From IMG/VR virus record IMGVR_UViG_3300029262_000003, positions 1 to 38,114 of that record: a DNA stretch of 38,114 nt, one strand, 5' to 3'. The position numbers and the translations under genes are program-made. This DNA comes from a virus. Positions 1-37,317 of this stretch are shown here, piece by piece (position 1 is the stretch's first letter; the number at the start of each line of letters is the position of its first letter). The notes under the pieces were generated by a model, which searched no databases, was not told the origin of the DNA, and saw only the letters and a program-made list of their open reading frames with translations.

Positions 1-385
1 TAACATGCAGAAGGTACAGGCTATGGGAACCATCCGTGCAGCGATTGGTGAGGGTATGCTCGAAGGTGAATCCATGAAGCGCATCAAGCGTATCGAAGAA
101 GGCAACTACATTCGGGAGGCAAATAGTGTCACCGAGAATTACCGCCGAGACTACGCGAGTATCTTTGCGCAACAGTTGGGACGCACTCAGTCCACAGCAA
201 GTCAAGTCGATGCAATGTACAAGAGCGAGGCCAAAGGTAAGTCTGGTCTGATGCGTGTACTAGACCCTCTGTCCATTATGGGTCAGGAAGCTGCAAGTCA
301 ATATGCGGCTGGTGGATTTGACAAGAAAGGTGGCAACCAAGCAGCACCTATCAGTGCCGCCAAAGGAACTAAGACCGGGAGGTAA
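1..385 (+). CDS. 14: Internal virion protein gp14, 3' part (gene cut by the contig ends)
   Basis: This is the C-terminal part of gp14, in frame from base 2 to the TAA at 383-385. The 5' part is at 37765-38114. Because bases 1-141 repeat the last 141 bases, joining 37765-37973 to 1-385 gives one 197-residue protein, against 196 in T7. The protein ends in KGTKTGR, as the T7 protein does by my recollection. In the T7 family gp14 belongs to the internal head core with gp15 and gp16 and is ejected first, entering the outer membrane to start the DNA channel. Gene 15 begins 3 bp downstream. Relative to T7 the sequence is clearly diverged, unlike gp15 and gp16 that follow. The break is an assembly cut, not a biological truncation. 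Confidence 0.93.
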   Translation, partial: NMQKVQAMGTIRAAIGEGMLEGESMKRIKRIEEGNYIREANSVTENYRRDYASIFAQQLGRTQSTASQVDAMYKSEAKGKSGLMRVLDPLSIMGQEAASQYAAGGFDKKGGNQAAPISAAKGTKTGR

Positions 386-387
386 TA

Positions 388-2634
388 ATGGCTAGTAAAC
401 TAAATAGTGTTTTAGGCAACATGGCGACTCCCGGTATGGAACGACTCAGGGGAGTCCGGGGGATGGACTACAGGGCAGCAACCATTCAGGCAGAGCAACC
501 TAGAGCGAGTCTTCTGGACTCCATTGGTCGATTCGCTAAGGCTGGTGCCGATATGTATATCGCTAAGGAACAACGAGCACGCGACCTAGCTGACGAACGC
601 TCTAACGAGATTATCCGTAAGCTGACACCTGAGCAACGTCGAGAGGCTCTCAACAATGGGACCCTTCTGTATCAGGATGACCCATACGCTATGGAAGCAC
701 TGCGAGTCAAGACTGGTCGTAACGCTGCGTACCTTGTGGACGACGACGTTATGCAGAAGGTCAAAGAAGGTGTCTTCCGTACTCGTGAGGAGATGGAACA
801 GTATCGCCATAGTCGTCTTCAAGAGGGCGCTAAGGCATACGCTGAGCAGTTCGGTATTGACCCTGAGGACGTTGATTATCAGCGTGGTTTCAATGGGGAC
901 ATTACCGAGCGTAACATCTCACTGTATGGCGCACACGATAACTTCTTGAGCCAGCAAGCTCAGAAGGGTGCCATCATGAACAGCCGAGTGGAACTCAACG
1001 GTGTCCTTCAAGACCCTGATATGCTTCGTCGCCCAGACTCTGCGGACTTCTTTGAGAAGTACATCGACAACGGTCTGGTTACCGGAGCAATCCCGTCTGA
1101 CGCTCAGGCTACACAGCTTATAAGCCAAGCGCTCAGTGACGCTTCTAGCCGTGCTGGTGGTGCTGACTTCCTGATGCGAGTCGGTGACAAGAAGGTAACA
1201 CTTAATGGAGCCACTACGACTTACCGAGAGTTGATGGGTGAAGAACAGTGGAATGCTCTCATGGTCACAGCACAACGTTCTCAGTTTGAGAATGACGCTA
1301 AGCTGAACGAGCAGTACCGCTTGAAGATTAACTCTGCGCTGAACCAAGAGGACCCTCGTACTGCGTGGGAGATGCTTCAAGGTATCAAGGCTGAACTCGA
1401 TAAGGTTCAACCTGATGAGCAGATGACACCGCAACGTGAGTGGCTAATCTCGGCACAGGAACAAGTTCAGAATCAGATGAACGCATGGACGAAGGCTCAA
1501 GCCAAAGCTCTGGATGACTCAATGAAGTCTATGAACAAACTTGACGTAATCGACAAGCAGTTCCAGAAGCGAATCAACGGTGAGTGGGTCTCAACGGACT
1601 TCAAGGATATGCCAACAAACGAGAACACTGGTGAGTTCAAACATAGTGATATGGTTAACTACGCCAATAAGAAGCTCGCGGAGATTGACCGCATGGACAT
1701 CCCAGATAGCGCCAAGGACATGATGAAGTTGAAGTACCTTCAAGCGGACTCTAAGGACGGGGCATTCCGTACAGCAATCGGAACTATGGTGACTGACGCT
1801 GGTCAAGAGTGGTCTGCCGCTGTGATTAACGGTAAGTTGCCAGAACGAACCCCAGCTCTGGATGCTCTACGTAGAATCCGTAATGCCGACCCCCAGTTGA
1901 TTGCTGCGCTATACCCAGACCAAGCTGAGCTATTCCTGACGATGGACATGATGGACAAGCAGGGTATTGACCCTCAGGTTATTCTTGACGCTGACCGACT
2001 GACTGCCAAGCGTTCCAAAGAGCAACGATTCGAGGACGATAAAGCATTCGAGTCTGCATTGAATAGCTCTACGGCCCCTGAGATTGCCCGTATGCCAGCG
2101 TCACTTCGTGAATCTGCACGTAAGATTTATGACTCAGTTAAGTACCGCTCTGGGAACGAAAGCATGGCTATGGAGCAGATGACCAAGTTCCTTAAGGAAT
2201 CTACCTACACGTTCACTGGTGACGATGTTGACGGTGATACCATCGGTGTGATTCCTAAGAACATGATGCAAGTCAACTCTGACCCGAAATCATGGGAGCA
2301 AGGTCGCGATATTCTGGAGGAAGCACGTAAGGGAATCATTGCGAGCAACCAGTGGATAACCAACAAGCAACTGACCATGTATTCTCAAGGTGACTCCATT
2401 TACCTCATGGACACCACTGGTCAAGTCCGCGTCCGTTATGATAAAGAGTTACTCTCGAAGGTCTGGAGTGAGAACCAGAAGAAACTCGAAGAGAAGGCTC
2501 GTGAGAAGGCTCTGGCTGATGTGAACAAGCGGGCACCTATCGTTGCCGCAACGAAGGCCCGTGAATCTGCTGCTAAACGAGTCCGAGAGAAACGTAAACA
2601 GACTCCGAAGTTCATCTATGGACGCAAGGAGTAA
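388..2634 (+). CDS. 15: Internal virion protein gp15 (ejection core protein)
   Basis: This 748-residue protein matches T7 gp15 (747 residues) in length and, as far as I can recall that sequence, almost residue for residue after about position 28. The first 27 residues are different. gp15 forms part of the cylindrical core above the portal and is ejected with gp16 to build the periplasmic DNA-translocation conduit. It is soluble, helix-rich and highly charged, with no membrane segment and a basic C-terminal tail (AKRVREKRKQTPKFIYGRKE). The ATG at 388 has AAGACCGGGAGGT just upstream, inside the end of gene 14. The sharp change in similarity to T7 near nucleotide 465 marks the left edge of a T7-like block. 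Confidence 0.95.
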   Translation: MASKLNSVLGNMATPGMERLRGVRGMDYRAATIQAEQPRASLLDSIGRFAKAGADMYIAKEQRARDLADERSNEIIRKLTPEQRREALNNGTLLYQDDPYAMEALRVKTGRNAAYLVDDDVMQKVKEGVFRTREEMEQYRHSRLQEGAKAYAEQFGIDPEDVDYQRGFNGDITERNISLYGAHDNFLSQQAQKGAIMNSRVELNGVLQDPDMLRRPDSADFFEKYIDNGLVTGAIPSDAQATQLISQALSDASSRAGGADFLMRVGDKKVTLNGATTTYRELMGEEQWNALMVTAQRSQFENDAKLNEQYRLKINSALNQEDPRTAWEMLQGIKAELDKVQPDEQMTPQREWLISAQEQVQNQMNAWTKAQAKALDDSMKSMNKLDVIDKQFQKRINGEWVSTDFKDMPTNENTGEFKHSDMVNYANKKLAEIDRMDIPDSAKDMMKLKYLQADSKDGAFRTAIGTMVTDAGQEWSAAVINGKLPERTPALDALRRIRNADPQLIAALYPDQAELFLTMDMMDKQGIDPQVILDADRLTAKRSKEQRFEDDKAFESALNSSTAPEIARMPASLRESARKIYDSVKYRSGNESMAMEQMTKFLKESTYTFTGDDVDGDTIGVIPKNMMQVNSDPKSWEQGRDILEEARKGIIASNQWITNKQLTMYSQGDSIYLMDTTGQVRVRYDKELLSKVWSENQKKLEEKAREKALADVNKRAPIVAATKARESAAKRVREKRKQTPKFIYGRKE

Positions 2635-2660
2635 CTAAAGGCTACATAAGGAGGCCCTAA

Positions 2661-5600
2661 ATGGATAAGTACGATAAGAACGTACCAAGTGATTATGATG
2701 GTCTGTTCCAAAAGGCGGCTGATGCCAACGGGGTCTCTTATGACCTTTTACGTAAAGTCGCTTGGACAGAGTCACGATTTGTACCCACAGCTAAATCTAA
2801 GACTGGACCATTAGGCATAATGCAATTCACCAAGGCAACCGCTAATGCCCTTGGTCTGCGAGTTACAGATGGTCCAGACGACGACCGACTTAACCCTGAG
2901 TTAGCTATCAACGCTGCCGCTAAGCACCTTGCAGGTCTGGTAGGTAAATTCGACGGTGATGAACTTAAAGCTGCCCTTGCATACAACCAAGGCGAGGGAC
3001 GCTTGGGTAATCCACAACTTGAGGCATACTCTAAGGGAGACTTCGCGTCCATCTCTGAGGAAGGACGTAACTATCTGCGTAACCTTCTGGATGTCGCTAA
3101 GTCACCGATGGCTGGACAGTTGGAAACTTTTGGAGGTATCACCCCAAAGGGTAAAGGCATTCCGGCTGACGTTGGACTAGCTGGAATCGACCACAGTCAG
3201 AAAGTAACACAGGAACTTCCTGAGTCCACAAGTTTTGACGTTAAAGGTATCGAACAGGAGGCTCCGGCGAAACCATTCGCCAAGGACTTTTGGGAGACCC
3301 ACGGAGAAACACTTGATGAGTACAACAGTCGTTCAACCTTCTTCGGATTCAAAAATGCTACCGAAGCTGAACTCTCCAACTCAGTCGCTGGGATGGCTTT
3401 CCGTGCTGGTCGCCTCGATAATGGTTTTGATGTGTTTAAAGACACCATTACGCCGACTCGCTGGAACTCTCACATCTGGACTCCAGAAGAGTTAGAGAAG
3501 ATTCGAACTGAGGTTAAGAACCCTGCGTATATCAACGTGGTAACTGGTGGTTCTCCTGAGAATCTTGACGACCTCATTAAGTTGGCTAACGAGAACTTTG
3601 AGAATGACTCACGCTCTGCCGAAGCTGGACTGGGTGCCAAACTGAGTGCTGGTATTATCGGTGCTGGTGTGGACCCACTCAGCTATGTTCCTATGGTCGG
3701 TGTGACTGGTAAGAGCTTTAAGTTAATCAATAAGGCTCTTGTAGTTGGTGCCGAAAGTGCTGCGCTGAACGTTGCATCCGAAGGTCTACGTACCTCCGTA
3801 GCTGGTGGTGACGCTGACTACTCAGGGGCTGCTTTAGGTGGCTTTGTGTTTGGTGCTGGTATGTCCGCAATCAGTGACGCTATCGCTGCTGGACTGAAAC
3901 GTAGTAAACCCGAAACTGAGTTCGACAATGAGTTCATCGGACCTATGATGCGAATGGAAGCCCGTGAGACCGCACGCAACGCAAACTCTACGGACCTCTC
4001 TCGTATGAACACTGATAACATGAAGTTTGAAGGTGAGCATAACGGAGTACCTTATGAGGACCTTCCTACTGAGAAGGGCGCTGTGGTACTGCACGATGGC
4101 TCCGTTATAAGTGCAAACAACCCAATCAACCCTAAGACCCTCAAAGAGTTCTCTGAGGTTGACCCTGAGAAGGCTGCGCGAGGAATCAAACTTGCTGGGT
4201 TCACCGAGATAGGCTTGAAGACCTTGGGGTCTGACGATGCTGACATCCGCAGAGTGGCTATCGACCTCGTTCGCTCTCCTACTGGTATGCAGTCTGGTGC
4301 CTCAGGGAAGTTCGGTGCAACAGCTTCTGACATCCATGAGAGACTTCACGGTACCGACCAGCGTACTTATAATGACTTGTACAAAGCAATGTCTGACGCT
4401 ATGAAAGACCCTGAGTTCTCTACTGGCGGAGCTAAGATGTCCCGTGAAGAAACTCGCTACACTATCTACCGTAGAGCGGCACTGGCTATTGAGCGTCCAG
4501 AGTTACAGAAGGCACTCACTCCGTCTGAGAGAATAGTTATGGACACTATTAAGCGTCACTTTGACACCAAGCGTGAACTTATGGAGAACCCAGCAATCTT
4601 CGGTAATACGAAGTCTGTTAGTATTTTCCCTGAGAGTCGCCACAAAGGGACTTACGTTCCTCACGTTTACGACCGTCATGCAAAAGCACTGATGATTCAA
4701 CGCTACGGTGCCGAAGGTTTACAGGAAGGTATTGCTCGTTCGTGGATGAACAGCTACGTCTCCAGACCTGGGGTCAAGGTCAGAGTCGATGAGATGCTTA
4801 AGGAATTACACGGGGTGAAGGAAGTAACACCAGAGATGGTAGAGAAGTACGCTATGGATAAGGCTTACGGTATCTCCCACTCAGACCAGTTCACCAACAG
4901 TTCCATAATCGAAGAGAACATTGAGGGCTTAGTAGGTATAGAGAACAACTCATTCCTTGAGGCACGTAACTTGTTTGATTCGGACCTATCCATCACTATG
5001 CCAGACGGACAGCAATTCTCAGTGAACGACCTAAGGGACTTCGATATGTTCCGCATCATGCCAGCGTATGACCGCCGTATCAATGGTGACATCGCTATCA
5101 TGGGGTCTACAGGGAAAACCACTAAGGAACTTAAGGATGAGATTTTGGCTCTCAAAGCGAAAGCTGAGGGAGACGGTAAGAAGACTGGCGAGGTTCATGC
5201 TCTAATGGATACCGTTAAGATTCTTACTGGTCGTGCTCGACGTAATCAGGACACTGTGTGGGAAACCACATTACGTTCCATCAATGACCTAGGGTTCTTC
5301 GCTAAGAACGCCTACATGGGTGCTCAGAACATTACGGAGATTGCTGGGATGATTGTCACTGGTAACGTGCGTGCTCTCGGTCACGGTATCCCAATTCTGC
5401 GTGACACCCTCTACAAGTCTAAACCAGTTTCCGCTAAGGAACTCAAGGAACTCCATGCGTCTCTGTTCGGAAAGGAGGTGGACCAGTTGATTAGACCTCA
5501 ACGTGCTGATATAGTGCAGCGTCTAAGGGAAGCAACTGATACAGGGCCTGTTGTGGCGAACATCGTAGGTACCTTGAAGTATTCCACACAGGAACTGGCT

Positions 5601-6617
5601 GCTCGCTCTCCGTGGACTAAGCTGCTGAACGGAACCACTAACTACCTTCTGGATGCTGCGCGTCAAGGTATGCTTGGGGACGTTATTAGTGCCACCCTAA
5701 CAGGCAAGACTACCCGCTGGGAGAAAGAAGGCTTCCTTCGTGGTGCCTCCGTAACTCCTGAGCAGATGGCTGGCATCAAGTCTCTCATCAAGGAACATAT
5801 GGTACGTGGTGAGGACGGGAAGTTTACAGTTAAGGACAAGCAAGCGTTCTCTATGGACCCACGGGCTATGGACTTATGGCGACTGGCTGACAAGGTAGCT
5901 GATGAGGCAATGCTGCGTCCGCATAAGGTGTCCTTACAGGATTCCCATGCGTTCGGAGCATTAGGTAAGATGGTTATGCAGTTTAAGTCTTTCACTATCA
6001 AGTCCCTTAACTCTAAGTTCCTGCGAACCTTCTATGATGGATACAAGAACAACCGAGCGATTGACGCTGCGCTGAGCATTATCACCTCTATGGGTCTCGC
6101 TGGTGGTTTCTATGCTATGGCTGCACACGTCAAAGCATACGCTCTGCCTAAGGAGAAACGTAAGGAGTACTTGGAGCGTGCACTGGACCCAACCATGATT
6201 GCCCACGCTGCGTTATCTCGTAGTTCTCAATTGGGCGCTCCTTTGGCTATGGCTGACCTAGTTGGCGGTGTCTTAGGGTTCGAATCTTCCAAGATGGCTC
6301 GCTCAACGATTCTGCCTAAGGACACCATGAAGGAACGTGACCCAAACAAACCGTACACCTCTAGAGAGGTAATGGGAGCTATGGGTTCGAACCTTCTGGA
6401 GCAGATGCCTTCCGCTGGCTTTGTGGCTAACGTAGGGGCTACCTTAATGAATGCTGCTGGTGTGGTTAACTCACCTAACAAAGCAACCGAGCAGGACTTC
6501 ATGACTGGATTGATGAACTCTACCAAAGAGTTAGTGCCTAACGACCCTCTTACTCAACAGCTTGTGGTTAAGATTTATGAGGCGAACGGTGTTAACCTGA
6601 GGGAGCGTAAGAAATAA
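2661..6617 (+). CDS. 16: Internal virion protein gp16 with lytic transglycosylase domain
   Basis: At 1,318 residues this equals the length of T7 gp16. Residues about 10-150 form a soluble lytic transglycosylase domain: the catalytic Glu37 sits in AWTESRF, followed by GPLGIMQ and ALAYNQGEG. In the T7 family this activity locally opens peptidoglycan during DNA ejection, and the rest of the protein threads through the cell envelope and pulls in the first part of the genome. Hydrophobic stretches occur near residues 325-405 and 1135-1155. The start ATG follows AAGGAGGCCCTAA. The stop codon TAA (6615-6617) is the first three bases of a T7-type promoter. By recollection the protein is nearly identical to the T7 one, so the gene lies inside the T7-like block. 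Confidence 0.96.
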   Translation: MDKYDKNVPSDYDGLFQKAADANGVSYDLLRKVAWTESRFVPTAKSKTGPLGIMQFTKATANALGLRVTDGPDDDRLNPELAINAAAKHLAGLVGKFDGDELKAALAYNQGEGRLGNPQLEAYSKGDFASISEEGRNYLRNLLDVAKSPMAGQLETFGGITPKGKGIPADVGLAGIDHSQKVTQELPESTSFDVKGIEQEAPAKPFAKDFWETHGETLDEYNSRSTFFGFKNATEAELSNSVAGMAFRAGRLDNGFDVFKDTITPTRWNSHIWTPEELEKIRTEVKNPAYINVVTGGSPENLDDLIKLANENFENDSRSAEAGLGAKLSAGIIGAGVDPLSYVPMVGVTGKSFKLINKALVVGAESAALNVASEGLRTSVAGGDADYSGAALGGFVFGAGMSAISDAIAAGLKRSKPETEFDNEFIGPMMRMEARETARNANSTDLSRMNTDNMKFEGEHNGVPYEDLPTEKGAVVLHDGSVISANNPINPKTLKEFSEVDPEKAARGIKLAGFTEIGLKTLGSDDADIRRVAIDLVRSPTGMQSGASGKFGATASDIHERLHGTDQRTYNDLYKAMSDAMKDPEFSTGGAKMSREETRYTIYRRAALAIERPELQKALTPSERIVMDTIKRHFDTKRELMENPAIFGNTKSVSIFPESRHKGTYVPHVYDRHAKALMIQRYGAEGLQEGIARSWMNSYVSRPGVKVRVDEMLKELHGVKEVTPEMVEKYAMDKAYGISHSDQFTNSSIIEENIEGLVGIENNSFLEARNLFDSDLSITMPDGQQFSVNDLRDFDMFRIMPAYDRRINGDIAIMGSTGKTTKELKDEILALKAKAEGDGKKTGEVHALMDTVKILTGRARRNQDTVWETTLRSINDLGFFAKNAYMGAQNITEIAGMIVTGNVRALGHGIPILRDTLYKSKPVSAKELKELHASLFGKEVDQLIRPQRADIVQRLREATDTGPVVANIVGTLKYSTQELAARSPWTKLLNGTTNYLLDAARQGMLGDVISATLTGKTTRWEKEGFLRGASVTPEQMAGIKSLIKEHMVRGEDGKFTVKDKQAFSMDPRAMDLWRLADKVADEAMLRPHKVSLQDSHAFGALGKMVMQFKSFTIKSLNSKFLRTFYDGYKNNRAIDAALSIITSMGLAGGFYAMAAHVKAYALPKEKRKEYLERALDPTMIAHAALSRSSQLGAPLAMADLVGGVLGFESSKMARSTILPKDTMKERDPNKPYTSREVMGAMGSNLLEQMPSAGFVANVGATLMNAAGVVNSPNKATEQDFMTGLMNSTKELVPNDPLTQQLVVKIYEANGVNLRERKK

Positions 6618-6637
6618 TACGACTCACTATAGGGAGA
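6615..6637 (+). promoter_or_regulatory. phi17 promoter of T7 type (not T3 type)
   Basis: The sequence TAATACGACTCACTATAG, continuing GGAGA, is a perfect T7 class III consensus with predicted +1 at 6632. All 14 other phage promoters here carry the T3 core ACCCTCACTAA or a close variant. The encoded RNA polymerase has Asp749, the T3 specificity residue, so this promoter should be weak for the phage's own enzyme. The transcript 5' end could fold, with GGGAGA (6632-6637) pairing to TCTCCC (6651-6656). It overlaps the gene 16 stop codon. Confidence 0.97.
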
Positions 6638-6689
6638 GGCGAAATAATCTTCTCCCTGTAGTCTCTTAGATTTACTTTAAGGAGGTCAA

Positions 6690-8366
6690 ATGGCTAACGT
6701 AATTAAAACCGTTTTGACTTACCAGTTAGATGGCTCCAATCGTGATTTTAATATCCCGTTTGAGTATCTAGCCCGTAAGTTCGTAGTAGTAACCCTTATT
6801 GGCGTAGACCGCAAGGTCCTTACGATTAATACAGACTACCGTTTTGCTACGCGTACTACCATCTCACTTACCAAGGCTTGGGGTCCAGCGGATGGATACA
6901 CTACCATCGAGTTACGCCGAGTAACCTCCACAACCGACCGATTGGTTGACTTTACGGATGGTTCAATCCTCCGTGCGTATGACCTTAACGTCGCTCAGAT
7001 TCAAACGATGCACGTAGCGGAAGAGGCCCGTGACCTCACTGCTGATACCATAGGTGTCAATAATGATGGTCATTTGGATGCTCGTGGTCGTCGAATTGTT
7101 AACCTAGCGAACGCTGTGGATGACCGCGACGCTGTTCCGTTTGGTCAACTTAAGACCATGAACCAGAACTCGTGGCAGGCGCGTAATGAGGCACTACAGT
7201 TCCGTAATGAGGCTGAGACTTTCAGAAATCAAACGGAGGTTTTTAAGAATGAGTCCGGTACTAACGCTACGAACACAAAGCAGTGGCGAGATGAGGCTAA
7301 TGGGTCCCGAGATGAAGCCGAGCAGTTCAAGAATACGGCTGGTCAATACGCTACATCTGCTGGGAACTCTGCTACTGCTGCGCATCAATCTGAGGTAAAC
7401 GCTGAGAACTCCGCTACAGCAGCAGCGAACTCTGCGAATTTGGCAGAACAACACGCAGACCGTGCGGAACGTGAAGCAGACAAGCTGGGGAATTTTAATG
7501 GACTGGCTGGTGCAATTGACAGGGTGGATGGAACCAATGTGTACTGGAAAGGAGGTATCCATGCGAACGGACGCCTTTACCTTACCTCAGATGGTTTCGA
7601 CTGTGGTCAGTATCAACAGTTCTTTGGTGGTTCTGCTGGTCGTTACTCTGTCATGGAGTGGGGTGATGAGAACGGATGGCTGATGCATGTTCAACGTAGA
7701 GAGTGGACAACAGCGATAGGTGATAACATCCAGCTAGTAGTAAACGGACATATCATCGCCCAAGGTGGAGACATGACTGGTCCGCTGAAATTGCAGAATG
7801 GACATGCCCTTTACTTAGAGTCCGCATCCGACAAGGCGCAATATATTCTATCTAAAGATGGTAACAGAAACAACTGGTACATTGGTAGAGGATCAGATAA
7901 CAACAATGACTGTACCTTCCACTCCTATGTGTATGGTACGAACTTAACACTCAAGCCGGACTATGCAGTAGTTAACAAACGCTTCCACGTAGGTCAGGCA
8001 GTTGTAGCCACTGATGGTAATATTCAAGGTACTAAGTGGGGAGGTAAGTGGCTTGATGCTTACCTAAACGATACTTACGTTAAGAAGACAATGGCCTGGA
8101 CTCAAGTATGGGCTGCTGCTAGTGGTAGTTACATGGGAGGAGGTTCTCAGACTGATACTCTCCCACAGGACTTGCGATTCCGCAACATATGGATTAAGAC
8201 CAGAAACAACTATTGGAACTTCTTCCGAACTGGTCCTGACGGTATCTACTTCCTTTCAGCCGAGGGCGGTTGGCTAAAATTCCAGATACACTCTAATGGC
8301 AGGGTATTTAAGAACATAGCGGATAGAGATGCGCCTCCAACAGCAATAGCCGTAGAGGACGTGTAA
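6690..8366 (+). CDS. 17: Tail fibre protein gp17
   Basis: This 558-residue trimeric fibre is the host-receptor (LPS) binding protein. The N-terminal ~150 residues (MANVIKTVLTYQLDGSNRDF onward) are the conserved tail-attachment domain. An alanine-, asparagine- and glutamate-rich coiled-coil shaft runs over about residues 165-265. The remainder forms the distal knob and tip. By recollection the first ~160 residues are the same as T7, while the tip after about residue 470 (AASGSYMGGGSQ and beyond) is different and longer than in T7, fitting T3-specific adsorption. The start ATG has a strong AAGGAGG. The gene stands between the T7-type promoter and holin 17.5. Confidence 0.95.
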   Translation: MANVIKTVLTYQLDGSNRDFNIPFEYLARKFVVVTLIGVDRKVLTINTDYRFATRTTISLTKAWGPADGYTTIELRRVTSTTDRLVDFTDGSILRAYDLNVAQIQTMHVAEEARDLTADTIGVNNDGHLDARGRRIVNLANAVDDRDAVPFGQLKTMNQNSWQARNEALQFRNEAETFRNQTEVFKNESGTNATNTKQWRDEANGSRDEAEQFKNTAGQYATSAGNSATAAHQSEVNAENSATAAANSANLAEQHADRAEREADKLGNFNGLAGAIDRVDGTNVYWKGGIHANGRLYLTSDGFDCGQYQQFFGGSAGRYSVMEWGDENGWLMHVQRREWTTAIGDNIQLVVNGHIIAQGGDMTGPLKLQNGHALYLESASDKAQYILSKDGNRNNWYIGRGSDNNNDCTFHSYVYGTNLTLKPDYAVVNKRFHVGQAVVATDGNIQGTKWGGKWLDAYLNDTYVKKTMAWTQVWAAASGSYMGGGSQTDTLPQDLRFRNIWIKTRNNYWNFFRTGPDGIYFLSAEGGWLKFQIHSNGRVFKNIADRDAPPTAIAVEDV

Positions 8367-8389
8367 TAAGCATCAAAGGAACTACTTTA

Positions 8390-8405
8390 AGTCCACGGAT
8401 GGACT
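8390..8405 (+). other. Hairpin with CGGA tetraloop before gene 17.5
   Basis: AGTCCA (8390-8395) and TGGACT (8400-8405) form a perfect 6-bp stem around the loop CGGA. No U-run follows, so a terminator is unlikely. A hairpin with the same CCA-CGGA-TGG heart lies after gene 19 at 11242-11255. Confidence 0.5.
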
Positions 8406-8424
8406 ATCACACTAAGGAGGACAC

Positions 8425-8628
8425 ATGTTGTCATTGGATTTTAACAACGAACTAATTAAAGCGGCACCGATTGTAGGTACAGGTGTTGCAGATGTTAGTG
8501 CAAGACTGTTCTTCGGGCTAAGCCTGAATGAATGGTTCTATGTGGCTGCTATCGCCTACACAGTGGTTCAGATTGGTGCCAAGGTAGTCGATAAGATTAT
8601 TGATTGGAAGAAAGCAACTAAGGAGTAA
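8425..8628 (+). CDS. 17.5: Holin gp17.5
   Basis: This 67-residue protein matches T7 gp17.5 in length and almost throughout in sequence by recollection. It carries one strong hydrophobic segment at about residues 36-55 (EWFYVAAIAYTVVQIGAKVV) and a lysine-rich C-terminus (DWKKATKE), the usual holin layout. It permeabilises the inner membrane so that lysozyme gp3.5 reaches the cell wall. The ATG at 8425 follows AAGGAGGACAC. Small terminase gene 18 starts 4 bp after its stop, and the spanins are two genes downstream, forming a lysis-packaging cluster. Confidence 0.93.
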   Translation: MLSLDFNNELIKAAPIVGTGVADVSARLFFGLSLNEWFYVAAIAYTVVQIGAKVVDKIIDWKKATKE

Positions 8629-8632
8629 CTCT

Positions 8633-8902
8633 ATGGAAGTCGATAAGAGCCTGATAGCTTTCTTAGAGATGTTGGATACAGCGATGGCTCAACGTATGCT
8701 GGCAGACCTAGCTAACGACGAGAAGCGCACCCCACAACTCTATAACGCTATCAACAAACTGTTAGACCGTCACAAGTTCCAAATCGGTAAGTTGCAGCCG
8801 GATGTTCACATCTTGGGTGGCCTTGCTGGTGCTCTTGAGGAGTACAAAGAGAAAGTCGGTGACAACGGTCTTACGGATGACGATATTTATACATTACAGT
8901 GA
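8633..8902 (+). CDS. 18: Small terminase subunit gp18
   Basis: The 89-residue product has the T7 gp18 length and its typical C-terminal part (KLQPDVHILGG, DNGLTDDDIYTLQ). It recognises concatemeric DNA and works with gp19 at the procapsid portal to start packaging. I chose the ATG at 8633, after AAGGAGTAACT, over the upstream in-frame ATG at 8600, because 8633 gives the family length and avoids overlapping the holin. The acidic C-terminus is normal for the family. Confidence 0.93.
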   Translation: MEVDKSLIAFLEMLDTAMAQRMLADLANDEKRTPQLYNAINKLLDRHKFQIGKLQPDVHILGGLAGALEEYKEKVGDNGLTDDDIYTLQ

Positions 8903-8905
8903 TAT

Positions 8906-8937
8906 GCTCAAGGTCTCCTACGGGTGGCCTTTATGGA
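8906..8937 (+). promoter_or_regulatory. RNase III processing hairpin (R18.5-like)
   Basis: GCTCAAGGTC...GGGTGGCCTTTATGG is a short stem-loop of the AAGGNC/GGCCTT type that T7-group phages use for RNase III cleavage between cistrons. It lies between genes 18 and 18.5. Confidence 0.7.
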
Positions 8938-8995
8938 TGTCATTGTCTACACGAGATGCTCCTACCGTGAAATCTGAAAGTTAACGGGAGGCATT

Positions 8996-9439
8996 ATGCT
9001 AGAATTTTTACGTAAGCTAATCCCTTGGGTTCTCGCTGGGATGCTATTCGGATTGGGATGGCATCTAGGGTCAGACTCAATGGACGCTAAATGGAAACAG
9101 GAGGTACACAATGAGTACGTTAAGAGAGTTGAGGCTACGGCGAGCACTCAAAGAGCAATCAATGAAATATCGGCTAAGTATCAAGAAGACCTTGCCGCGC
9201 TGGAAGGGAGCACTGATAGGATTATTTCTGATTTGCGTAGCGACAATAAGCGGCTGCGCGTCAGAGTCAAACCTACCGGAACCTCCGAAGGTCAGTGTGG
9301 ATTCGAGCCTGATGATCGAGCCGAACTTGACGACCGAGATGCTAAACGTATTCTCTCAGTGACCCAGAAGGGTGACGCATGGATTCGTGCGTTACAGGAT
9401 ACTATTCGTGAACTGCAACGTAAGCAGGAAATCAAGTAA
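8996..9439 (+). CDS. 18.5: Inner-membrane spanin gp18.5 (Rz-like)
   Basis: The 147-residue protein has an N-terminal membrane anchor at about residues 8-27 (LIPWVLAGMLFGLGWHLG), then a long charged periplasmic coiled coil. This is the Rz (i-spanin) layout. With the lipoprotein gp18.7, encoded inside the same stretch in another frame, it spans the periplasm and fuses the two membranes in the last step of lysis. The ATG at 8996 follows GGGAGGCATT. T7 gp18.5 is 143 residues. Confidence 0.92.
   Translation: MLEFLRKLIPWVLAGMLFGLGWHLGSDSMDAKWKQEVHNEYVKRVEATASTQRAINEISAKYQEDLAALEGSTDRIISDLRSDNKRLRVRVKPTGTSEGQCGFEPDDRAELDDRDAKRILSVTQKGDAWIRALQDTIRELQRKQEIK
9111..9362 (+). CDS. 18.7: Outer-membrane spanin gp18.7 (Rz1-like lipoprotein), nested in 18.5
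   Basis: This 83-residue frame is wholly embedded in gene 18.5 in the +1 frame, the usual Rz/Rz1 arrangement. A basic N-terminus (RRALKEQSMKYRLSIKK) is followed by a hydrophobic stretch and the lipobox ATISGC with Cys49 as the lipidation site. The mature part is proline-containing (SNLPEPPKV) and short, as for o-spanins. The first ATG is preceded by AGGAGGTACACA, which makes 9111 the likely start. A shorter product from Met18 would also keep the signal sequence. Confidence 0.88.
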   Translation: MSTLRELRLRRALKEQSMKYRLSIKKTLPRWKGALIGLFLICVATISGCASESNLPEPPKVSVDSSLMIEPNLTTEMLNVFSQ

Positions 9440-9448
9440 GGAGGCAAC

Positions 9449-11209
9449 GTGTCTACTCAATCCAATCGTAATGCGCTCGTAGTGGCGCAACTGAAAGGAG
9501 ACTTCGTGGCGTTCCTGTTCGTCTTATGGAAGGCGTTAAATCTTCCGGTGCCAACTAAGTGCCAAATAGATATGGCTAAGGTGCTGGCGAATGGAGACAA
9601 CAAGAAGTTCATCCTACAGGCTTTCCGTGGTATCGGTAAGTCGTTCATCACATGTGCGTTCGTTGTGTGGACGTTATGGCGTGACCCTCAGTTGAAGATA
9701 CTGATTGTCTCTGCATCCAAAGAACGTGCGGACGCTAACTCCATCTTCATCAAGAACATCATTGACCTGCTGCCCTTCTTGGCTGAGCTAAAGCCACGCC
9801 CCGGTCAGCGTGACTCTGTGATTAGTTTCGATGTTGGCCCTGCCAAGCCTGACCACTCTCCGTCTGTGAAGTCGGTGGGTATCACTGGTCAGTTGACTGG
9901 TAGCCGTGCTGATATCATCATAGCGGATGACGTTGAGATTCCGTCTAACTCCGCAACTCAAGGTGCCCGTGAGAAGCTGTGGACTCTGGTGCAGGAATTT
10001 GCTGCGCTTCTGAAACCGCTGCCGACCTCTCGCGTTATCTACCTTGGTACGCCTCAAACCGAAATGACCTTGTACAAGGAACTCGAAGATAACCGTGGGT
10101 ACACCACAATCATCTGGCCTGCGCTCTATCCGCGTAGCCGTGAGGAAGACTTGTACTATGGTGAACGTCTGGCCCCTATGCTCCGTGAGGAGTTCAACGA
10201 TGGGTTCGAGATGCTCCAAGGCCAACCAACTGACCCCGTGCGATTCGACATGGAAGACCTACGGGAACGTGAGTTGGAATACGGTAAGGCTGGCTTCACT
10301 TTACAGTTCATGCTTAACCCGAACCTTAGTGATGCCGAGAAGTACCCCTTACGCCTCCGTGACGCTATCGTGTGCGGTCTTGACTTCGAGAAAGCCCCAA
10401 TGCACTACCAGTGGCTTCCGAACCGTCAGAATCGCAATGAGGAGCTGCCTAACGTGGGCCTTAAGGGTGATGACATTCATAGCTATCATTCGTGCAGCCA
10501 GAACACTGGACAGTACCAGCAACGCATCCTCGTGATTGACCCTAGTGGTCGAGGTAAGGATGAGACAGGTTACGCAGTGTTGTTCACCCTGAATGGCTAC
10601 ATCTATCTGATGGAAGCTGGCGGGTTCCGCGATGGTTATTCCGATAAGACCCTTGAGTCCCTCGCTAAGAAAGCGAAGCAGTGGAAGGTTCAGACAGTGG
10701 TCTTCGAGAGTAACTTCGGGGATGGTATGTTTGGTAAGGTATTCAGCCCTGTGCTCCTTAAACACCATGCAGCAGCTCTGGAAGAGATTCGTGCTCGTGG
10801 TATGAAGGAACTACGCATTTGTGATACGCTGGAGCCTGTACTCTCTACGCACCGCCTTGTGATTCGTGATGAGGTGATTCGTGAGGACTACCAGACTGCC
10901 CGTGACGCTGATGGCAAGCATGACGTTCGCTATTCGCTGTTCTACCAGTTGACCCGTATGGCTCGTGAGAAGGGCGCTGTGGCCCATGATGACCGACTTG
11001 ATGCGTTAGCGTTAGGTGTGGAGTTCTTGCGCTCTACGATGGAACTGGACGCCGTGAAGGTGGAAGCCGAGGTGCTTGAGGCATTCTTAGAGGAACACAT
11101 GGAGCACCCAATACATTCGGCTGGTCACGTAGTTACCGCTATGGTTGACGGGATGGAACTCTATTGGGAGGATGACGATGTGAATGGCGATAGGTTCATT
11201 AACTGGTAG
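9449..11209 (+). CDS. 19: Large terminase subunit gp19 (packaging ATPase and nuclease), GTG start
   Basis: The 586-residue terminase powers DNA translocation into the procapsid and cuts concatemers. The Walker A-type loop is AFRGIGKSF (about residues 58-66) and Walker B is ADIIIADD (about 154-161). The RNase H-like nuclease domain begins near [11 protein letters not shown] (Asp364) and ends with HDDRLDAL (about 513-520). The start is GTG after AAGGAGGCAAC. By recollection the N-terminal third closely follows T7 while the rest is more divergent, so the right edge of the T7-like block probably falls near 10.1-10.2 kb. It overlaps no neighbour. phiOR and 19.5 follow. Confidence 0.95.
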
Positions 11210-11289: not shown

Positions 11290-11312
11290 CATTAACCCTC
11301 ACTAAAGGGAGA
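11290..11312 (+). promoter_or_regulatory. phiOR promoter (T3 type)
   Basis: ATTAACCCTCACTAAAGGGA followed by GAG matches the T3 consensus, with +1 at 11307. Its position after gene 19 and before the right genome end corresponds to phiOR, which drives 19.5 and is tied to replication and packaging at the right end in T7. Confidence 0.93.
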
Positions 11313-14809: not shown

Positions 14810-17464
14810 ATGAACATCATCGAAAACATCGAAAAGAATGACTTCTCAGAAATCGAACTGGCTGCTATCCCGTTCAACACACTGGCTGACCACTACGGAA
14901 GCGCCTTGGCTAAAGAGCAGTTGGCTTTAGAACATGAGTCTTATGAGCTAGGCGAGCGCCGCTTCCTCAAGATGCTTGAGCGTCAAGCGAAAGCTGGTGA
15001 GATTGCAGACAACGCAGCCGCTAAGCCGTTACTCGCTACGCTTCTCCCTAAGTTAACCACACGTATCGTCGAGTGGCTCGAAGAGTACGCATCGAAGAAA
15101 GGCCGCAAGCCTAGCGCATACGCACCGCTCCAGTTACTCAAGCCGGAGGCCTCCGCGTTTATCACCCTGAAAGTTATCCTTGCGTCACTAACCAGTACGA
15201 ACATGACAACCATTCAGGCCGCTGCTGGTATGCTGGGGAAAGCCATTGAGGACGAGGCACGATTTGGGCGCATCCGTGACCTAGAAGCGAAGCACTTCAA
15301 GAAGCACGTTGAGGAACAGCTTAACAAGCGCCACGGGCAAGTCTACAAGAAAGCATTTATGCAGGTGGTCGAGGCCGATATGATTGGTCGAGGTCTGCTT
15401 GGTGGCGAGGCGTGGTCTAGCTGGGATAAAGAAACCACGATGCACGTAGGGATTCGCCTGATTGAAATGCTGATTGAATCCACGGGTCTGGTGGAATTAC
15501 AGCGCCACAACGCAGGTAACGCAGGCTCTGACCATGAGGCACTGCAACTGGCCCAAGAGTACGTGGACGTATTAGCGAAGCGTGCAGGCGCTCTGGCGGG
15601 TATCTCTCCGATGTTCCAGCCGTGTGTCGTACCGCCGAAACCTTGGGTAGCAATCACAGGGGGCGGCTATTGGGCTAACGGTCGCAGACCTTTGGCACTC
15701 GTTCGCACTCACTCTAAGAAGGGCTTGATGCGCTACGAAGACGTTTACATGCCAGAAGTCTACAAGGCTGTGAACCTCGCGCAAAACACCGCATGGAAAA
15801 TCAACAAGAAAGTTCTTGCTGTTGTCAATGAGATTGTTAACTGGAAGAATTGCCCGGTAGCAGACATTCCATCGCTGGAGCGCCAAGAGTTACCGCCTAA
15901 GCCTGACGACATTGACACCAACGAGGCAGCGCTCAAGGAGTGGAAGAAAGCCGCTGCTGGTATCTATCGCTTGGACAAGGCACGAGTGTCTCGCCGTATC
16001 AGCTTAGAGTTCATGCTGGAGCAGGCCAACAAGTTCGCAAGTAAGAAAGCAATCTGGTTCCCTTACAACATGGACTGGCGCGGTCGTGTGTACGCTGTGC
16101 CGATGTTCAACCCGCAAGGCAACGACATGACGAAAGGTCTGCTGACCCTTGCTAAAGGCAAGCCAATCGGTGAGGAAGGTTTCTACTGGCTGAAAATCCA
16201 CGGTGCGAACTGTGCGGGTGTTGATAAGGTTCCATTCCCGGAGCGCATCGCGTTCATTGAGAAGCACGTAGACGACATTCTGGCTTGCGCTAAAGACCCA
16301 ATCAATAACACTTGGTGGGCTGAGCAGGATTCACCGTTCTGTTTCCTCGCGTTTTGCTTCGAGTATGCAGGCGTTACGCACCACGGTCTGAGCTACAATT
16401 GCTCTCTGCCGCTGGCGTTCGACGGGTCTTGCTCTGGTATCCAGCACTTCTCCGCGATGCTCCGCGATGAGGTAGGCGGTCGTGCGGTTAACCTGCTGCC
16501 AAGCGAAACCGTGCAGGACATTTACGGCATCGTTGCACAGAAAGTAAACGAGATTCTCAAACAGGATGCAATCAACGGCACGCCTAACGAGATGATTACC
16601 GTGACCGACAAGGACACCGGGGAAATCTCAGAGAAGCTCAAACTTGGAACCTCAACGCTGGCGCAACAGTGGCTGGCATATGGTGTAACCCGTAGCGTAA
16701 CTAAACGTTCGGTCATGACGCTGGCTTACGGTTCCAAGGAGTTCGGCTTTCGTCAACAGGTATTGGATGACACCATTCAGCCTGCAATTGACAGCGGTAA
16801 GGGCTTGATGTTCACCCAACCGAACCAAGCGGCTGGCTATATGGCTAAGCTGATTTGGGATGCGGTAAGCGTGACCGTAGTTGCAGCGGTTGAGGCGATG
16901 AACTGGCTCAAATCTGCCGCTAAGCTGCTGGCTGCTGAGGTCAAGGACAAGAAGACCAAGGAGATTCTGCGCCACCGTTGCGCGGTTCACTGGACTACGC
17001 CGGACGGCTTCCCGGTCTGGCAGGAATACCGCAAGCCACTCCAGAAGCGTCTCGATATGATTTTCTTAGGGCAATTCCGTCTGCAACCGACGATTAATAC
17101 CCTCAAGGATTCAGGCATTGACGCACACAAGCAGGAGTCTGGCATCGCTCCTAACTTTGTTCACTCACAGGACGGTAGCCACCTCCGCATGACAGTCGTT
17201 TATGCTCACGAGAAGTATGGCATTGAGTCCTTTGCGCTCATCCATGACAGCTTTGGGACTATCCCGGCAGACGCTGGTAAGCTCTTTAAGGCTGTGCGTG
17301 AAACGATGGTTATCACCTATGAGAACAACGATGTGCTGGCAGACTTCTACTCTCAGTTTGCCGACCAGCTACACGAGACCCAACTGGACAAGATGCCTCC
17401 GCTTCCGAAGAAAGGAAACCTGAACCTGCAAGACATTCTCAAGTCTGACTTTGCCTTTGCATAA
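14810..17464 (+). CDS. 1: Single-subunit phage RNA polymerase gp1, T3 specificity
   Basis: The 884-residue polymerase has the length of T3 gp1 (T7 is 883). By T7 alignment the catalytic aspartates are Asp538 and Asp813 (in LIHDSFG), with Lys632 in the substrate site, and the protein ends in the conserved DFAFA. In the promoter-recognition loop the sequence is KRLDMIFLGQ, giving Asp749. T7 has Asn748 there, and this residue is the main determinant of T3 versus T7 promoter choice. That agrees with the 14 T3-type promoters in this genome and conflicts with the T7-type phi17. The start ATG follows AATGAGGTAAGCA. Activity would be modulated by lysozyme gp3.5. Confidence 0.98.
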   Translation: MNIIENIEKNDFSEIELAAIPFNTLADHYGSALAKEQLALEHESYELGERRFLKMLERQAKAGEIADNAAAKPLLATLLPKLTTRIVEWLEEYASKKGRKPSAYAPLQLLKPEASAFITLKVILASLTSTNMTTIQAAAGMLGKAIEDEARFGRIRDLEAKHFKKHVEEQLNKRHGQVYKKAFMQVVEADMIGRGLLGGEAWSSWDKETTMHVGIRLIEMLIESTGLVELQRHNAGNAGSDHEALQLAQEYVDVLAKRAGALAGISPMFQPCVVPPKPWVAITGGGYWANGRRPLALVRTHSKKGLMRYEDVYMPEVYKAVNLAQNTAWKINKKVLAVVNEIVNWKNCPVADIPSLERQELPPKPDDIDTNEAALKEWKKAAAGIYRLDKARVSRRISLEFMLEQANKFASKKAIWFPYNMDWRGRVYAVPMFNPQGNDMTKGLLTLAKGKPIGEEGFYWLKIHGANCAGVDKVPFPERIAFIEKHVDDILACAKDPINNTWWAEQDSPFCFLAFCFEYAGVTHHGLSYNCSLPLAFDGSCSGIQHFSAMLRDEVGGRAVNLLPSETVQDIYGIVAQKVNEILKQDAINGTPNEMITVTDKDTGEISEKLKLGTSTLAQQWLAYGVTRSVTKRSVMTLAYGSKEFGFRQQVLDDTIQPAIDSGKGLMFTQPNQAAGYMAKLIWDAVSVTVVAAVEAMNWLKSAAKLLAAEVKDKKTKEILRHRCAVHWTTPDGFPVWQEYRKPLQKRLDMIFLGQFRLQPTINTLKDSGIDAHKQESGIAPNFVHSQDGSHLRMTVVYAHEKYGIESFALIHDSFGTIPADAGKLFKAVRETMVITYENNDVLADFYSQFADQLHETQLDKMPPLPKKGNLNLQDILKSDFAFA

Positions 17465-24879: not shown

Positions 24880-26994
24880 ATGCTCGTAAGTGACATTGAG
24901 GCCAACAACCTCTTAGAGAAAGTCACCAAGTTTCACTGTGGCGTCATCTATGACTACCGTGATGGTGAGTATCATAGTTATCGTCCGGGCGACTTCGGGG
25001 CGTATCTGGATGCGCTGGAAGCCGAGGTGAAGCGAGGTGGGCTTATTGTTTTCCATAACGGTCACAAGTATGACGTTCCTGCATTGACCAAACTGGCAAA
25101 GCTGCAATTGAACCGAGAGTTCCACCTTCCTCGTGAGAACTGTATCGACACCCTTGTGCTGTCACGCTTGATTCACTCTAACCTAAAGGACACCGATATG
25201 GGTCTTCTGCGTTCCGGTAAACTTCCGGGGAAACGCTTTGGGTCTCACGCTCTGGAGGCGTGGGGTTATCGCTTAGGCGAGATGAAGGGTGAATACAAGG
25301 ATGACTTTAAGCGTATGCTTGAAGAGCAAGGCGAAGAATACGTTGACGGAATGGAGTGGTGGAACTTCAATGAAGAGATGATGGACTATAACGTTCAGGA
25401 CGTTGTGGTCACTAAGGCTCTCCTTGAGAAGCTACTCTCTGACAAACATTACTTCCCTCCTGAGATTGACTTTACGGACGTAGGTTACACTACGTTCTGG
25501 TCAGAATCCCTTGAGGCCGTTGATGTTGAACATCGCGCTGCATGGCTACTCGCTAAGCAAGAGCGCAATGGATTCCCGTTTGACACGAAAGCAATCGAAG
25601 AGTTGTACGTAGAGTTAGCTGCTAGACGCTCTGAGTTGCTACGTAACTTGACCGAAACGTTTGGCTCGTGGTATCAACCTAAAGGTGGAACAGAAATGTT
25701 CTGCCATCCACGAACAGGTAAGCCACTACCTAAATACCCTCGCATTAAGATACCTAAAGTTGGTGGTATCTTTAAGAAGCCTAAGAACAAGGCACAGCGA
25801 GAAGGCCGTGAGCCTTGCGAACTGGATACCCGCGAGTACGTTGCTGGCGCTCCTTATACTCCAGTGGAGCACGTAGTGTTTAACCCTTCGTCTCGTGACC
25901 ACATCCAGAAGAAACTCCAAGAGGCTGGGTGGGTCCCAACTAAGTTCACCGATAAGGGTGCTCCTGTGGTGGACGATGAGGTACTCGAAGGAGTACGCGT
26001 AGATGACCCTGAGAAGCAAGCGGCTATCGACCTCATTAAAGAGTACTTGATGATTCAGAAGCGAATCGGACAGTCTGCTGAGGGAGACAAGGCATGGCTT
26101 CGTTACGTTGCTGAGGACGGTAAGATTCATGGTTCTGTTAACCCTAATGGAGCAGTTACGGGTCGTGCGACCCATGCGTTCCCCAACCTTGCGCAAATTC
26201 CGGGTGTACGTTCTCCTTATGGAGAGCAGTGTCGCGCTGCTTTTGGCGCTGAGCACCATTTGGATGGGATAACTGGTAAGCCTTGGGTTCAGGCAGGTAT
26301 CGACGCATCCGGCCTTGAGTTGCGCTGCTTGGCCCACTTCATGGCTCGCTTTGATAACGGTGAGTATGCTCACGAGATTCTTAATGGTGACATCCACACT
26401 AAGAACCAGATGGCTGCTGAATTACCTACCCGTGATAACGCTAAGACGTTCATCTATGGGTTCCTCTATGGTGCTGGTGATGAGAAGATTGGGCAGATTG
26501 TTGGTGCTGGTAAAGAGCGCGGTAAGGAACTCAAGAAGAAATTCCTTGAGAACACACCTGCGATTGCAGCACTACGTGAGTCTATACAACAGACGCTTGT
26601 CGAATCCTCTCAGTGGGTAGCTGGTGAGCAGCAAGTCAAGTGGAAACGCCGCTGGATTAAAGGTCTGGATGGTCGTAAGGTACACGTTCGTAGTCCTCAC
26701 GCTGCCCTGAATACCCTACTGCAATCCGCTGGTGCTCTCATCTGCAAACTGTGGATTATCAAGACCGAAGAGATGCTCGTAGAGAAAGGCTTGAAGCACG
26801 GCTGGGATGGGGACTTTGCGTACATGGCATGGATACACGACGAAATTCAGGTAGCTTGTCGTACCGAAGAAATCGCTAAGACTGTCATAGAGGTCGCACA
26901 AGAAGCGATGCGTTGGGTTGGAGAGCATTGGAACTTCCGTTGCTTACTCGACACCGAGGGTAAGATGGGAGCCAACTGGAAAGAATGTCACTAA
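24880..26994 (+). CDS. 5: DNA polymerase gp5
   Basis: The 704-residue family A polymerase has exactly the T7 length and ends in the conserved histidine (His704). The 3'-5' exonuclease site starts at [11 protein letters not shown] (Asp5, Glu7). Polymerase motifs are DASGLELRC (A), the O-helix [17 protein letters not shown] (B) and IHDEIQ (C). The thioredoxin-binding loop lies in the thumb at about residues 260-340, where the host TrxA binds and gives processivity. The start follows AAAGGAGGGCATT. It copies phage DNA with gp4, gp2.5 and host thioredoxin. Confidence 0.97.
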
Positions 26995-27004
26995 TGGAGG
27001 TATT

Positions 27005-27310
27005 ATGGGAGGCGTTGCAACATTGCGGTTTCACAAGATGCCTACCGGATGTATCGTGTGCGTTTCCCATAAGAGAAACCAAGATGGATACTTCCGGTAT
27101 AGCATAGGGTCTTCTCGTAAAGGTGAGAAGAAACACTTTATGTTTCATCGATGGGTGTGGGAACAACATAAAGGTCCGATACCAGATGGTTACGAGATAG
27201 ACCACATATGTCTTAATAGAGGTTGTTGTAACGTAGAGCACCTACAGTGTATACCAAAGCGAGACCACATTATTAAGACAAACAAAGAGCGTAAACTTGT
27301 CAAGAAATAA
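27005..27310 (+). CDS. 5.3: HNH endonuclease-like protein gp5.3
   Basis: From ATG 27005, after ATGGAGGTATT, the protein is 101 residues; the in-frame ATG at 26918 is inside gene 5. It shows a typical phage HNH motif: HRWVWEQHKGPIPDGYEIDH, then CLNRGCCNVEHLQ. This type occurs as free-standing homing-like endonucleases in T7-group phages. It is the only HNH gene I find here; the T7 homologues at 2.8, 3.8, 7 and 7.7 are missing. Base composition is more AT-rich than that of gene 5, consistent with a mobile origin. Whether it cuts DNA is not shown. Confidence 0.85.
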   Translation: MGGVATLRFHKMPTGCIVCVSHKRNQDGYFRYSIGSSRKGEKKHFMFHRWVWEQHKGPIPDGYEIDHICLNRGCCNVEHLQCIPKRDHIIKTNKERKLVKK

Positions 27311-27323
27311 AGGAGAAATTATT

Positions 27324-27620
27324 ATGGCTATCACTAAGAAATTTAAAGTGTCCTTTGATGTTACCCTTAAGCTGGACAGCGAGACCGAAGAACTGATGCG
27401 AGAAAAGATTCTGGACTTAGCGCATCGTGCTGGTGCTGGTGAGGAGATTACTCCTATGGACCGAGAGTTGCTCGTTCAGGCCCTAACACGCGGTCCAGAC
27501 GGTGCTGCTGCATTTGCTGTACGCCAAGGTATCCGTAATGCTGTCAAGGAGATGTTCGAAGAGACTAGTGATAAATCACTGTTAAAACTCTCTCCTGCAA
27601 CTGTACGGGAGGTGTTCTGA
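27324..27620 (+). CDS. 5.5: gp5.5, H-NS-binding protein
   Basis: The product is 98 residues from ATG 27324, which follows AAAGGAGAAATTATT; the ORF opening at 27297 is upstream of this site. T7 gp5.5 (99 residues) binds the host nucleoid protein H-NS and relieves its repression, and is also involved in resisting the Rex exclusion system. The start MAITKKFKVSFDVT and the end SPATVREVF match T7, while the centre is diverged. The stop overlaps the 5.7 start region (TGATG), suggesting coupling; T7 also makes a 5.5-5.7 fusion by frameshift. Confidence 0.87.
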   Translation: MAITKKFKVSFDVTLKLDSETEELMREKILDLAHRAGAGEEITPMDRELLVQALTRGPDGAAAFAVRQGIRNAVKEMFEETSDKSLLKLSPATVREVF

Positions 27621-27829
27621 TGTCTGACTACCTGAAAGTGCTACAAGCAATCAAAGGTTGCCCTAAGACTTTCCAGTCCAACTATGTACGGAACAATGCG
27701 AGCCTCGTAGCGGAGGCCGCTTCCCGTGGTCACATCTCGTGCCTGACCACAAGTGGACGTAACGGTGGCGCTTGGGAAATTACTGCTTCTGGTACTCGCT
27801 TTTTGAAACGAATGGGAGGTTGTGTCTAA
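27620..27829 (+). CDS. 5.7: gp5.7, inhibitor of the stationary-phase sigma factor
   Basis: The 69-residue protein is, as I recall it, almost identical to T7 gp5.7, which binds sigma-S RNA polymerase and blocks RpoS-dependent transcription in slow-growing hosts. It has TSGRNGGAWEITASGTRFLK at the C-terminal half and a small helical fold. Its start overlaps the 5.5 stop and its stop overlaps the 5.9 start (TAATG), so 5.5-5.7-5.9-6 form a tightly coupled run. This strong similarity contrasts with the divergent neighbour 5.5. Confidence 0.9.
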   Translation: MSDYLKVLQAIKGCPKTFQSNYVRNNASLVAEAASRGHISCLTTSGRNGGAWEITASGTRFLKRMGGCV

Positions 27830-27987
27830 TGTCTCGTGACCTTGTGACTATTCCGCGCGATGTGTGGAACGATATGCAAGGCTACATCGACTCTCTTGAA
27901 CGTGAGAACGATAGCCTTAAGAATCAACTGATGGAAGCTGACGAATACGTGGCTGAGCTAGAGGAGAAACTTAATGGCACTTCTTGA
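27829..27987 (+). CDS. 5.9: gp5.9, RecBCD inhibitor
   Basis: From ATG 27829 (TAATG overlap with 5.7) the product is 52 residues, as in T7, and by recollection nearly identical. It is a highly acidic parallel coiled coil (YIDSLERENDSLKNQLMEAD) that mimics DNA and blocks the RecBCD nuclease, protecting the linear phage genome. The longer frame from ATG 27772 would run inside 5.7 and is rejected. Its 3' end overlaps gene 6 by 14 bp. Confidence 0.92.
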   Translation: MSRDLVTIPRDVWNDMQGYIDSLERENDSLKNQLMEADEYVAELEEKLNGTS

Positions 27988-28882: not shown

Positions 28883-28977
28883 TTACCGTCGCTGTGCTGG
28901 TAGGTATGCTGGCGCGTGGTCTCTGGATGTTCGCTCTCATAGTCCGAGACGTGAAGCGAGACTCAGAGATTAAGTGA
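28864..28977 (+). CDS. 6.3: gp6.3, small membrane protein
   Basis: The 37-residue frame from ATG 28864 (after AAGGAGATCTACTT) overlaps the end of gene 6 and stops at TGA 28975-28977. The sequence is one hydrophobic helix ([20 protein letters not shown]) with a basic-acidic tail ([11 protein letters not shown]). T7 gp6.3 is also 37 residues. Its function is unknown. An inner-membrane location is likely. Confidence 0.8.
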
Positions 28978-28979
28978 TA

Positions 28980-29037
28980 AACTCAAGGCTCTCTACAATT
29001 AACCCTCACTAAAGGGAAGAGGGAGCCTTTATGATTA
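28980..29037 (+). promoter_or_regulatory. RNase III hairpin R6.5 enclosing promoter phi6.5
   Basis: AACTCAAGGCTCTC at the left pairs with GAGGGAGCCTTTATGATT at the right (AAGGCTC facing GAGCCTT). phi6.5 forms the loop. Only transcripts read through from upstream carry the full hairpin; those starting at phi6.5 have just the right arm. Confidence 0.78.
28997..29019 (+). promoter_or_regulatory. phi6.5 promoter (T3 type)
   Basis: AATTAACCCTCACTAAAGGG continues AAG; +1 is at 29014. It is a strong consensus apart from +5/+6 and opens the late region. Confidence 0.94.
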
Positions 29038-29070
29038 TTACTTTAAGACTTAACCCTAAGAGGTGAAATT

Positions 29071-29316: not shown

Positions 29317-29320
29317 TTAT

Positions 29321-29572: not shown

Positions 29573-29598
29573 TTGTGACATAACATAGGGGACACATT

Positions 29599-29919: not shown

Positions 29920-29929
29920 GGAGGACTGA

Positions 29930-37279: not shown

Positions 37280-37317
37280 GTCTCCCTGCGGTGAATTAAC
37301 CCTCACTAAAGGGAGAC
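37280..37317 (+). promoter_or_regulatory. RNase III-type hairpin R13 enclosing promoter phi13
   Basis: GTCTCCC (37280-37286) pairs perfectly with GGGAGAC (37311-37317). The loop holds most of promoter phi13. Read-through mRNA can fold this way, whereas mRNA started at phi13 cannot. Confidence 0.72.
37294..37316 (+). promoter_or_regulatory. phi13 promoter (T3 type)
   Basis: AATTAACCCTCACTAAAGGG continues AGA, the full T3 class III consensus, with +1 at 37311. Confidence 0.97.

What the first reader, a model, noticed from the sequence alone, without database searches (positions are those of the whole stretch)
6615..6637. Perfect T7 promoter before the fibre gene in a phage with a T3-type RNA polymerase
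Seen: TAATACGACTCACTATAG plus GGAGA here, against 14 promoters with the T3 core; gp1 has Asp749 in KRLDMIFLG. Known: residue 748/749 and promoter bases near -11 separate T7 from T3 specificity. Inference: phi17 is nearly silent for the phage's own polymerase, so fibre, holin, terminase and spanins depend on read-through from phi13 and phi11. In mixed infection with a T7 relative, the foreign polymerase could boost exactly the host-range and lysis genes. The promoter is probably a relic of the recombination that imported the fibre region and may also be present in reference T3.
Basis: partly seen in the sequence, partly recalled or inferred. Interest (0 to 1): 0.72.

Follow-up and report, generated by a model that had tools for sequence, protein, structure and literature searches.

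The report
Known silent T7 promoter in T3
This is the classic laboratory phage T3, and the odd promoter before its tail-fibre gene is a leftover from a long-known swap of about 9 kb of DNA with a T7 relative; the T3 genome record already lists it as a T7 promoter that T3's own polymerase does not use, so the finding is real but not new.

Summary
Window 6615-6637 is an exact 23-bp T7 class III promoter (phi17) between genes 16 and 17. The same genome carries 14 T3-class promoters and a polymerase with Asp749 where T7 has Asn748. The window is phage T3 itself, circularly permuted (over 99.9% identical to the reference). The reference record AJ318471 annotates exactly this site as [quoted passage not shown]. 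The site sits inside a tract (window 558-9652) that is 99.84% identical to a 37,555-bp phage contig (very probably Yersinia phage phiA1122), 92.5% to T7 and 65.6% to phiYeO3-12. Outside the tract T3 follows phiYeO3-12. These borders match the published ones. Of 51 listed non-T3 records with T3-type polymerase, 49 have T3-class phi17 regions; the mismatch was seen only in T3/T7M. No T3-class promoter lies between phi13 and phiOR (about 12 kb), so fibre, holin, terminase and spanin genes must be transcribed by read-through. The mixed-infection boost is untested. The promoter's intact state is not evidence of selection, because the whole tract has hardly diverged. Already known; low interest.

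The parts
6615..6637 (+). T7-class III promoter phi17 (23-bp consensus); its first three bases are the gene 16 stop codon; start site would be 6632
   Evidence: annotated at the same place in AJ318471 (32757-32779) and in T7M
558..9652 (.). imported T7-type tract (gene 15 to start of gene 19) that contains the promoter
   Evidence: 99.84% identical to L092 (15 differences in 9095), 92.5% to T7, 65.6% to phiYeO3-12; same borders (T3 nt 26700-35794) in PMC4956903
6690..8366 (+). gene 17, tail fibre
   Evidence: ORF, annotation of T3
8425..8628 (+). gene 17.5, holin, downstream of phi17
8633..8902 (+). gene 18, small terminase subunit, downstream of phi17
8996..9439 (+). gene 18.5 spanin (Rz-like), with 18.7 (9111-9362) inside it
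9449..11209 (+). gene 19, large terminase subunit
14810..17464 (+). gene 1, T3-type RNA polymerase, Asp749
   Evidence: identical to the T3 gene
37294..37316 (+). phi13, nearest T3-class promoter upstream of gene 17 in the phage genome
34232..34254 (+). phi11, T3-class promoter
11290..11312 (+). phiOR, next T3-class promoter downstream of gene 17

Best explanation
The site is an orphan T7 phi17 promoter carried into the T3 lineage on a tract of about 9.1 kb (gene 15 to the start of gene 19) by recombination between a phiYeO3-12-like phage and a phiA1122-like T7 relative. The ancestor's own T3-class phi17 was replaced by the T7-class one, which the T3 polymerase (Asp749) does not read. Genes 17-19 are transcribed by T3 polymerase molecules that started at phi13, phi11 and earlier promoters leaking past Tphi. 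Shown: the sequence, the tract, its borders, the polymerase residue and the lack of another T3-class promoter. Stated by the depositors: no use by T3 RNA polymerase in vivo or in vitro. Inferred: read-through as the source of these transcripts, and no present function of the site.
For: Exact T7 promoter, with 14 T3 promoters elsewhere. Annotation in AJ318471 and T7M. phiYeO3-12 has a T3-class phi17 (AATAAACCCTCACTAAAGGGAGA) at the homologous place. Sharp identity switches at window about 558 and 9652-9671, matching PMC4956903. The leader and promoter of L092 are identical to T3. No other site in the window outside the 14 T3 promoters and phi17 scores above 9.3 on the T3 matrix. The Sxt1 authors also infer that T3 acquired its gp15/gp16 locus from a Teseptimavirus (PMC11680406).
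Against: None found. I did not see the primary data behind the 'not used in vivo or in vitro' note, and no transcript map of T3 was available to measure read-through. The name phiA1122 for L092 rests on its length (37,555 bp) and my knowledge; the contig carries no name and NC_004777 is not in the collection.
Confidence: 0.96

Rival explanations
1. Conditional promoter: kept by selection because a T7 relative's polymerase uses it in mixed infections and raises fibre and lysis gene expression.
For: The site is a perfect T7 promoter with an intact leader, so T7 RNA polymerase should use it.
Against: No sign of selection: the whole tract differs from L092 at only 0.16% of sites, so an unselected 23-mer would survive unchanged with probability 0.96. 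T3 and T7 are reported to exclude each other and recombine rarely (PMC3276506). 49 of the 51 listed non-T3 records with T3-type polymerase have a T3-class phi17 region.
Confidence: 0.03
2. The promoter DNA is retained for another reason: as gene 16's stop codon and as the 5' arm of a leader hairpin (GGGAGAGG/CUUCUCCC) in the read-through RNA.
For: TAA of the promoter is the gene 16 stop codon. The RNA from 6632 folds into an 8-bp 5' hairpin, -15.7 kcal/mol for the 61-nt leader.
Against: The fold is not better than shuffles (z -1.13, 25 of 200 shuffles as good). phiYeO3-12 has a different leader.
Confidence: 0.08
3. Sequence artefact: the T7 promoter was introduced by assembly or vector contamination.
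For: T7 promoters are common in vectors, and perfect copies can be mishandled in assemblies (AH67C600_Q5).
Against: Identical in every deposited T3/T7M genome found (AJ318471, KC960671, JX421753, LC730324 and RefSeq copies) and embedded in 9 kb of T7-type sequence.
Confidence: 0.005

Closest known systems
Enterobacteria phage T3 (AJ318471 / NC_003298), misc_feature 32757-32779
   Same: Same phage, same site, same sequence; annotated as an unused T7 promoter
   Different: Nothing at the site; the window is a circularly permuted assembly with a few single-base differences elsewhere
Phage T7 phi17 (NC_001604, start site 34566)
   Same: Identical 23-bp promoter and leader up to gene 17
   Different: In T7 it matches the phage's own polymerase; the surrounding tract is 92.5% identical, not the direct donor
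L092 (IMGVR_UViG_638277131, 37,555 bp; very probably Yersinia phage phiA1122)
   Same: 99.84% identical over the whole tract, promoter and leader identical
   Different: T7-class promoter also at phi13, so a T7-type system; differs strongly from T3 outside the tract
Yersinia phage phiYeO3-12 phi17 (NC_001271, 33896-33918)
   Same: Same map position; same backbone as T3 outside the imported tracts
   Different: T3-class sequence that matches its polymerase

Membership tests
T7-class phage promoter (phi17 type) | 23-bp consensus -17 to +6 | tested here: met
   23 of 23 bases, T7 matrix score 38.8 = maximum
T7-class phage promoter (phi17 type) | CGA at -12 to -10, the specificity bases | tested here: met
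   TAATAcgaCTCACTATAGGG
T7-class phage promoter (phi17 type) | position between gene 16 and gene 17 | tested here: met
   gene 16 stop at 6617, gene 17 start at 6690
T7-class phage promoter (phi17 type) | used by T7 RNA polymerase | not testable with these tools
   expected from identity with T7 phi17; needs in vitro transcription
T3-class phage promoter | ACC (or ACA) at -12 to -10 and match to the T3 consensus | tested here: not met
   T3 matrix score 18.0 against 31.0-38.1 for the 14 T3 promoters
Phage T3 (Teetrevirus) | genome identity to the reference | tested here: met
   over 99.9% along the whole window
T3-type RNA polymerase | Asp at the position of T7 Asn748 | tested here: met
   Asp749

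The most novel reading that the evidence does not exclude
The orphan T7 promoter in T3 acts as a conditional switch that a T7 relative's polymerase throws in mixed infection, raising host-range and lysis gene expression, and has been retained for that.
Probability: 0.03. Interest if true: 0.45.

Novelty: already known. Interest (0 to 1): 0.1.

Why it matters
It is a neat textbook case of a promoter orphaned by recombination between phages with different polymerase specificities, and it suggests that a strong late promoter before the fibre gene is dispensable. It may also matter in practice: T3 grown in strains that make T7 RNA polymerase (DE3 hosts) could express genes 17-19 abnormally (inference). 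All of this follows from what is already recorded for T3.

Tried and rejected
Looked for a cryptic T3-class promoter near gene 17 that would replace phi17: none; after the 14 promoters and phi17 itself, the next best site anywhere scores 9.3 against 31 or more for real promoters. Asked whether the promoter's perfect state shows selection: no, the tract is too recent (probability of chance survival 0.96 against L092, 0.17 against T7). Asked whether other T3-type phages share the mismatch: of 51 listed non-T3 records with a T3-type gene 1, 49 have a T3-class phi17 region (one of these only through its GenBank twin); the two phiCFP-1 records were not among the rows shown. A T7-like phage seemingly lacking phi17 (AH67C600_Q5) looked like natural proof that it is dispensable, but that record lacks the promoter at all five places checked and keeps only imperfect copies, so it is probably an assembly or trimming artefact. 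Papers likely to discuss the site are not held: Garcia et al. 2003, PMC181008, and Chen and Schneider 2005, PMC1275584; the 2002 T3 genome paper (Pajunen et al.) did not come up in the paper searches and was not looked up by id. I therefore rely on the sequence record's note and on PMC4956903.

Full report
What the sequence shows. TAATACGACTCACTATAGGGAGA stands at 6615-6637, + strand, 52 bases before the gene 17 start codon; its first three bases are the gene 16 stop codon. It is the only T7-core match in the window, even at 3 mismatches. The 14 T3-core matches are the 14 known T3 promoters, phiOL to phiOR. gp1 has Asp749 where T7 has Asn748.

What the window is. It aligns over its whole length to phage T3 (AJ318471, NC_047864), T7M and T3_AGU at 99.9% or more. 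It starts at T3 nt 26143, runs through the end and the start of the genome, and ends at nt 26283, with 141 identical bases at its two ends: a circularised assembly through the terminal repeat.

The site is already on record. AJ318471 lists 32757-32779 as 'T7 promoter sequence, which is not used by T3 RNA polymerase either in vivo or in vitro'. The T7M record lists it as 'similar to T7 promoter phi17'.

Where it came from. In 250-base steps T3 follows phiYeO3-12 up to the start of gene 15, then a T7-type sequence, then phiYeO3-12 again from the start of gene 19. The tract, T3 nt 26700-35794 (window 558-9652), is 99.84% identical to L092 (15 differences in 9095), 92.5% to T7 and 65.6% to phiYeO3-12. 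[quoted passage not shown] PMC11680406 reaches the same view for gp15 and gp16. L092 is a 37,555-bp contig; from my own knowledge this is the length of Yersinia phage phiA1122, whose published title (Garcia et al. [quoted passage not shown] A second T7-type tract (about window 25078-28520, genes 5 to 6) holds no T7-core match, so phi17 is the only orphaned promoter.

How it works, or does not. A matrix from the 14 T3 promoters scores phi17 at 18.0 against 31.0-38.1; no further site in the window scores above 9.3. Between phi13 and phiOR, about 12 kb, there is thus no T3-class promoter, and genes 17-19 must be served by read-through. This is inference from anatomy plus the record's note; no transcript map was available.

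Is it kept by selection? An unselected 23-mer would be unchanged with probability 0.96 given the divergence from L092, and 0.17 given that from T7. Its intact state is therefore no evidence of function. The hairpin at the start of the leader is no better than chance (z -1.13). T3 and T7 are reported to exclude each other and recombine rarely (PMC3276506), which weakens the mixed-infection idea without refuting it.

How general. Of 51 listed non-T3 records with a T3-type gene 1, 49 have a T3-class phi17 region, one of them counted through its GenBank twin. Two viral contigs with T3-class promoters (L106, L107) also have a T3-class phi17, and every contig with a T7-class promoter at phi13 has a T7-class one at phi17. 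The mismatch was seen only in T3/T7M.

Verdict: real, correctly described, correctly suspected to be a relic and to be present in reference T3, and already known.

Noticed in passing
L114 (MZ833439.1, phage AH67C600_Q5), upstream of genes 6.5, 9, 10, 13 and 17: Perfect 23-bp T7 promoters are missing from all five places checked while imperfect ones remain, and gene 10A is broken: probably exact-repeat collapse or trimming of the T7 promoter as vector sequence. Such records can mislead promoter surveys.
   Followed up: partly
window 1-141 and 37974-38114: The two ends are identical over 141 bases: the record is a circularly permuted T3 assembly joined through the terminal repeat, not a natural genome end.
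   Followed up: yes
window about 25078-28520: Second T7-type tract (genes 5 to 6) as published for T3; within it, about 26836-27586 (gene 5.3 region) is close to neither T7 nor phiYeO3-12.
   Followed up: partly
L092, whole tract: The donor-type tract differs from T3 at only 15 of 9095 sites, so the recombination that made T3 looks recent.
   Followed up: partly
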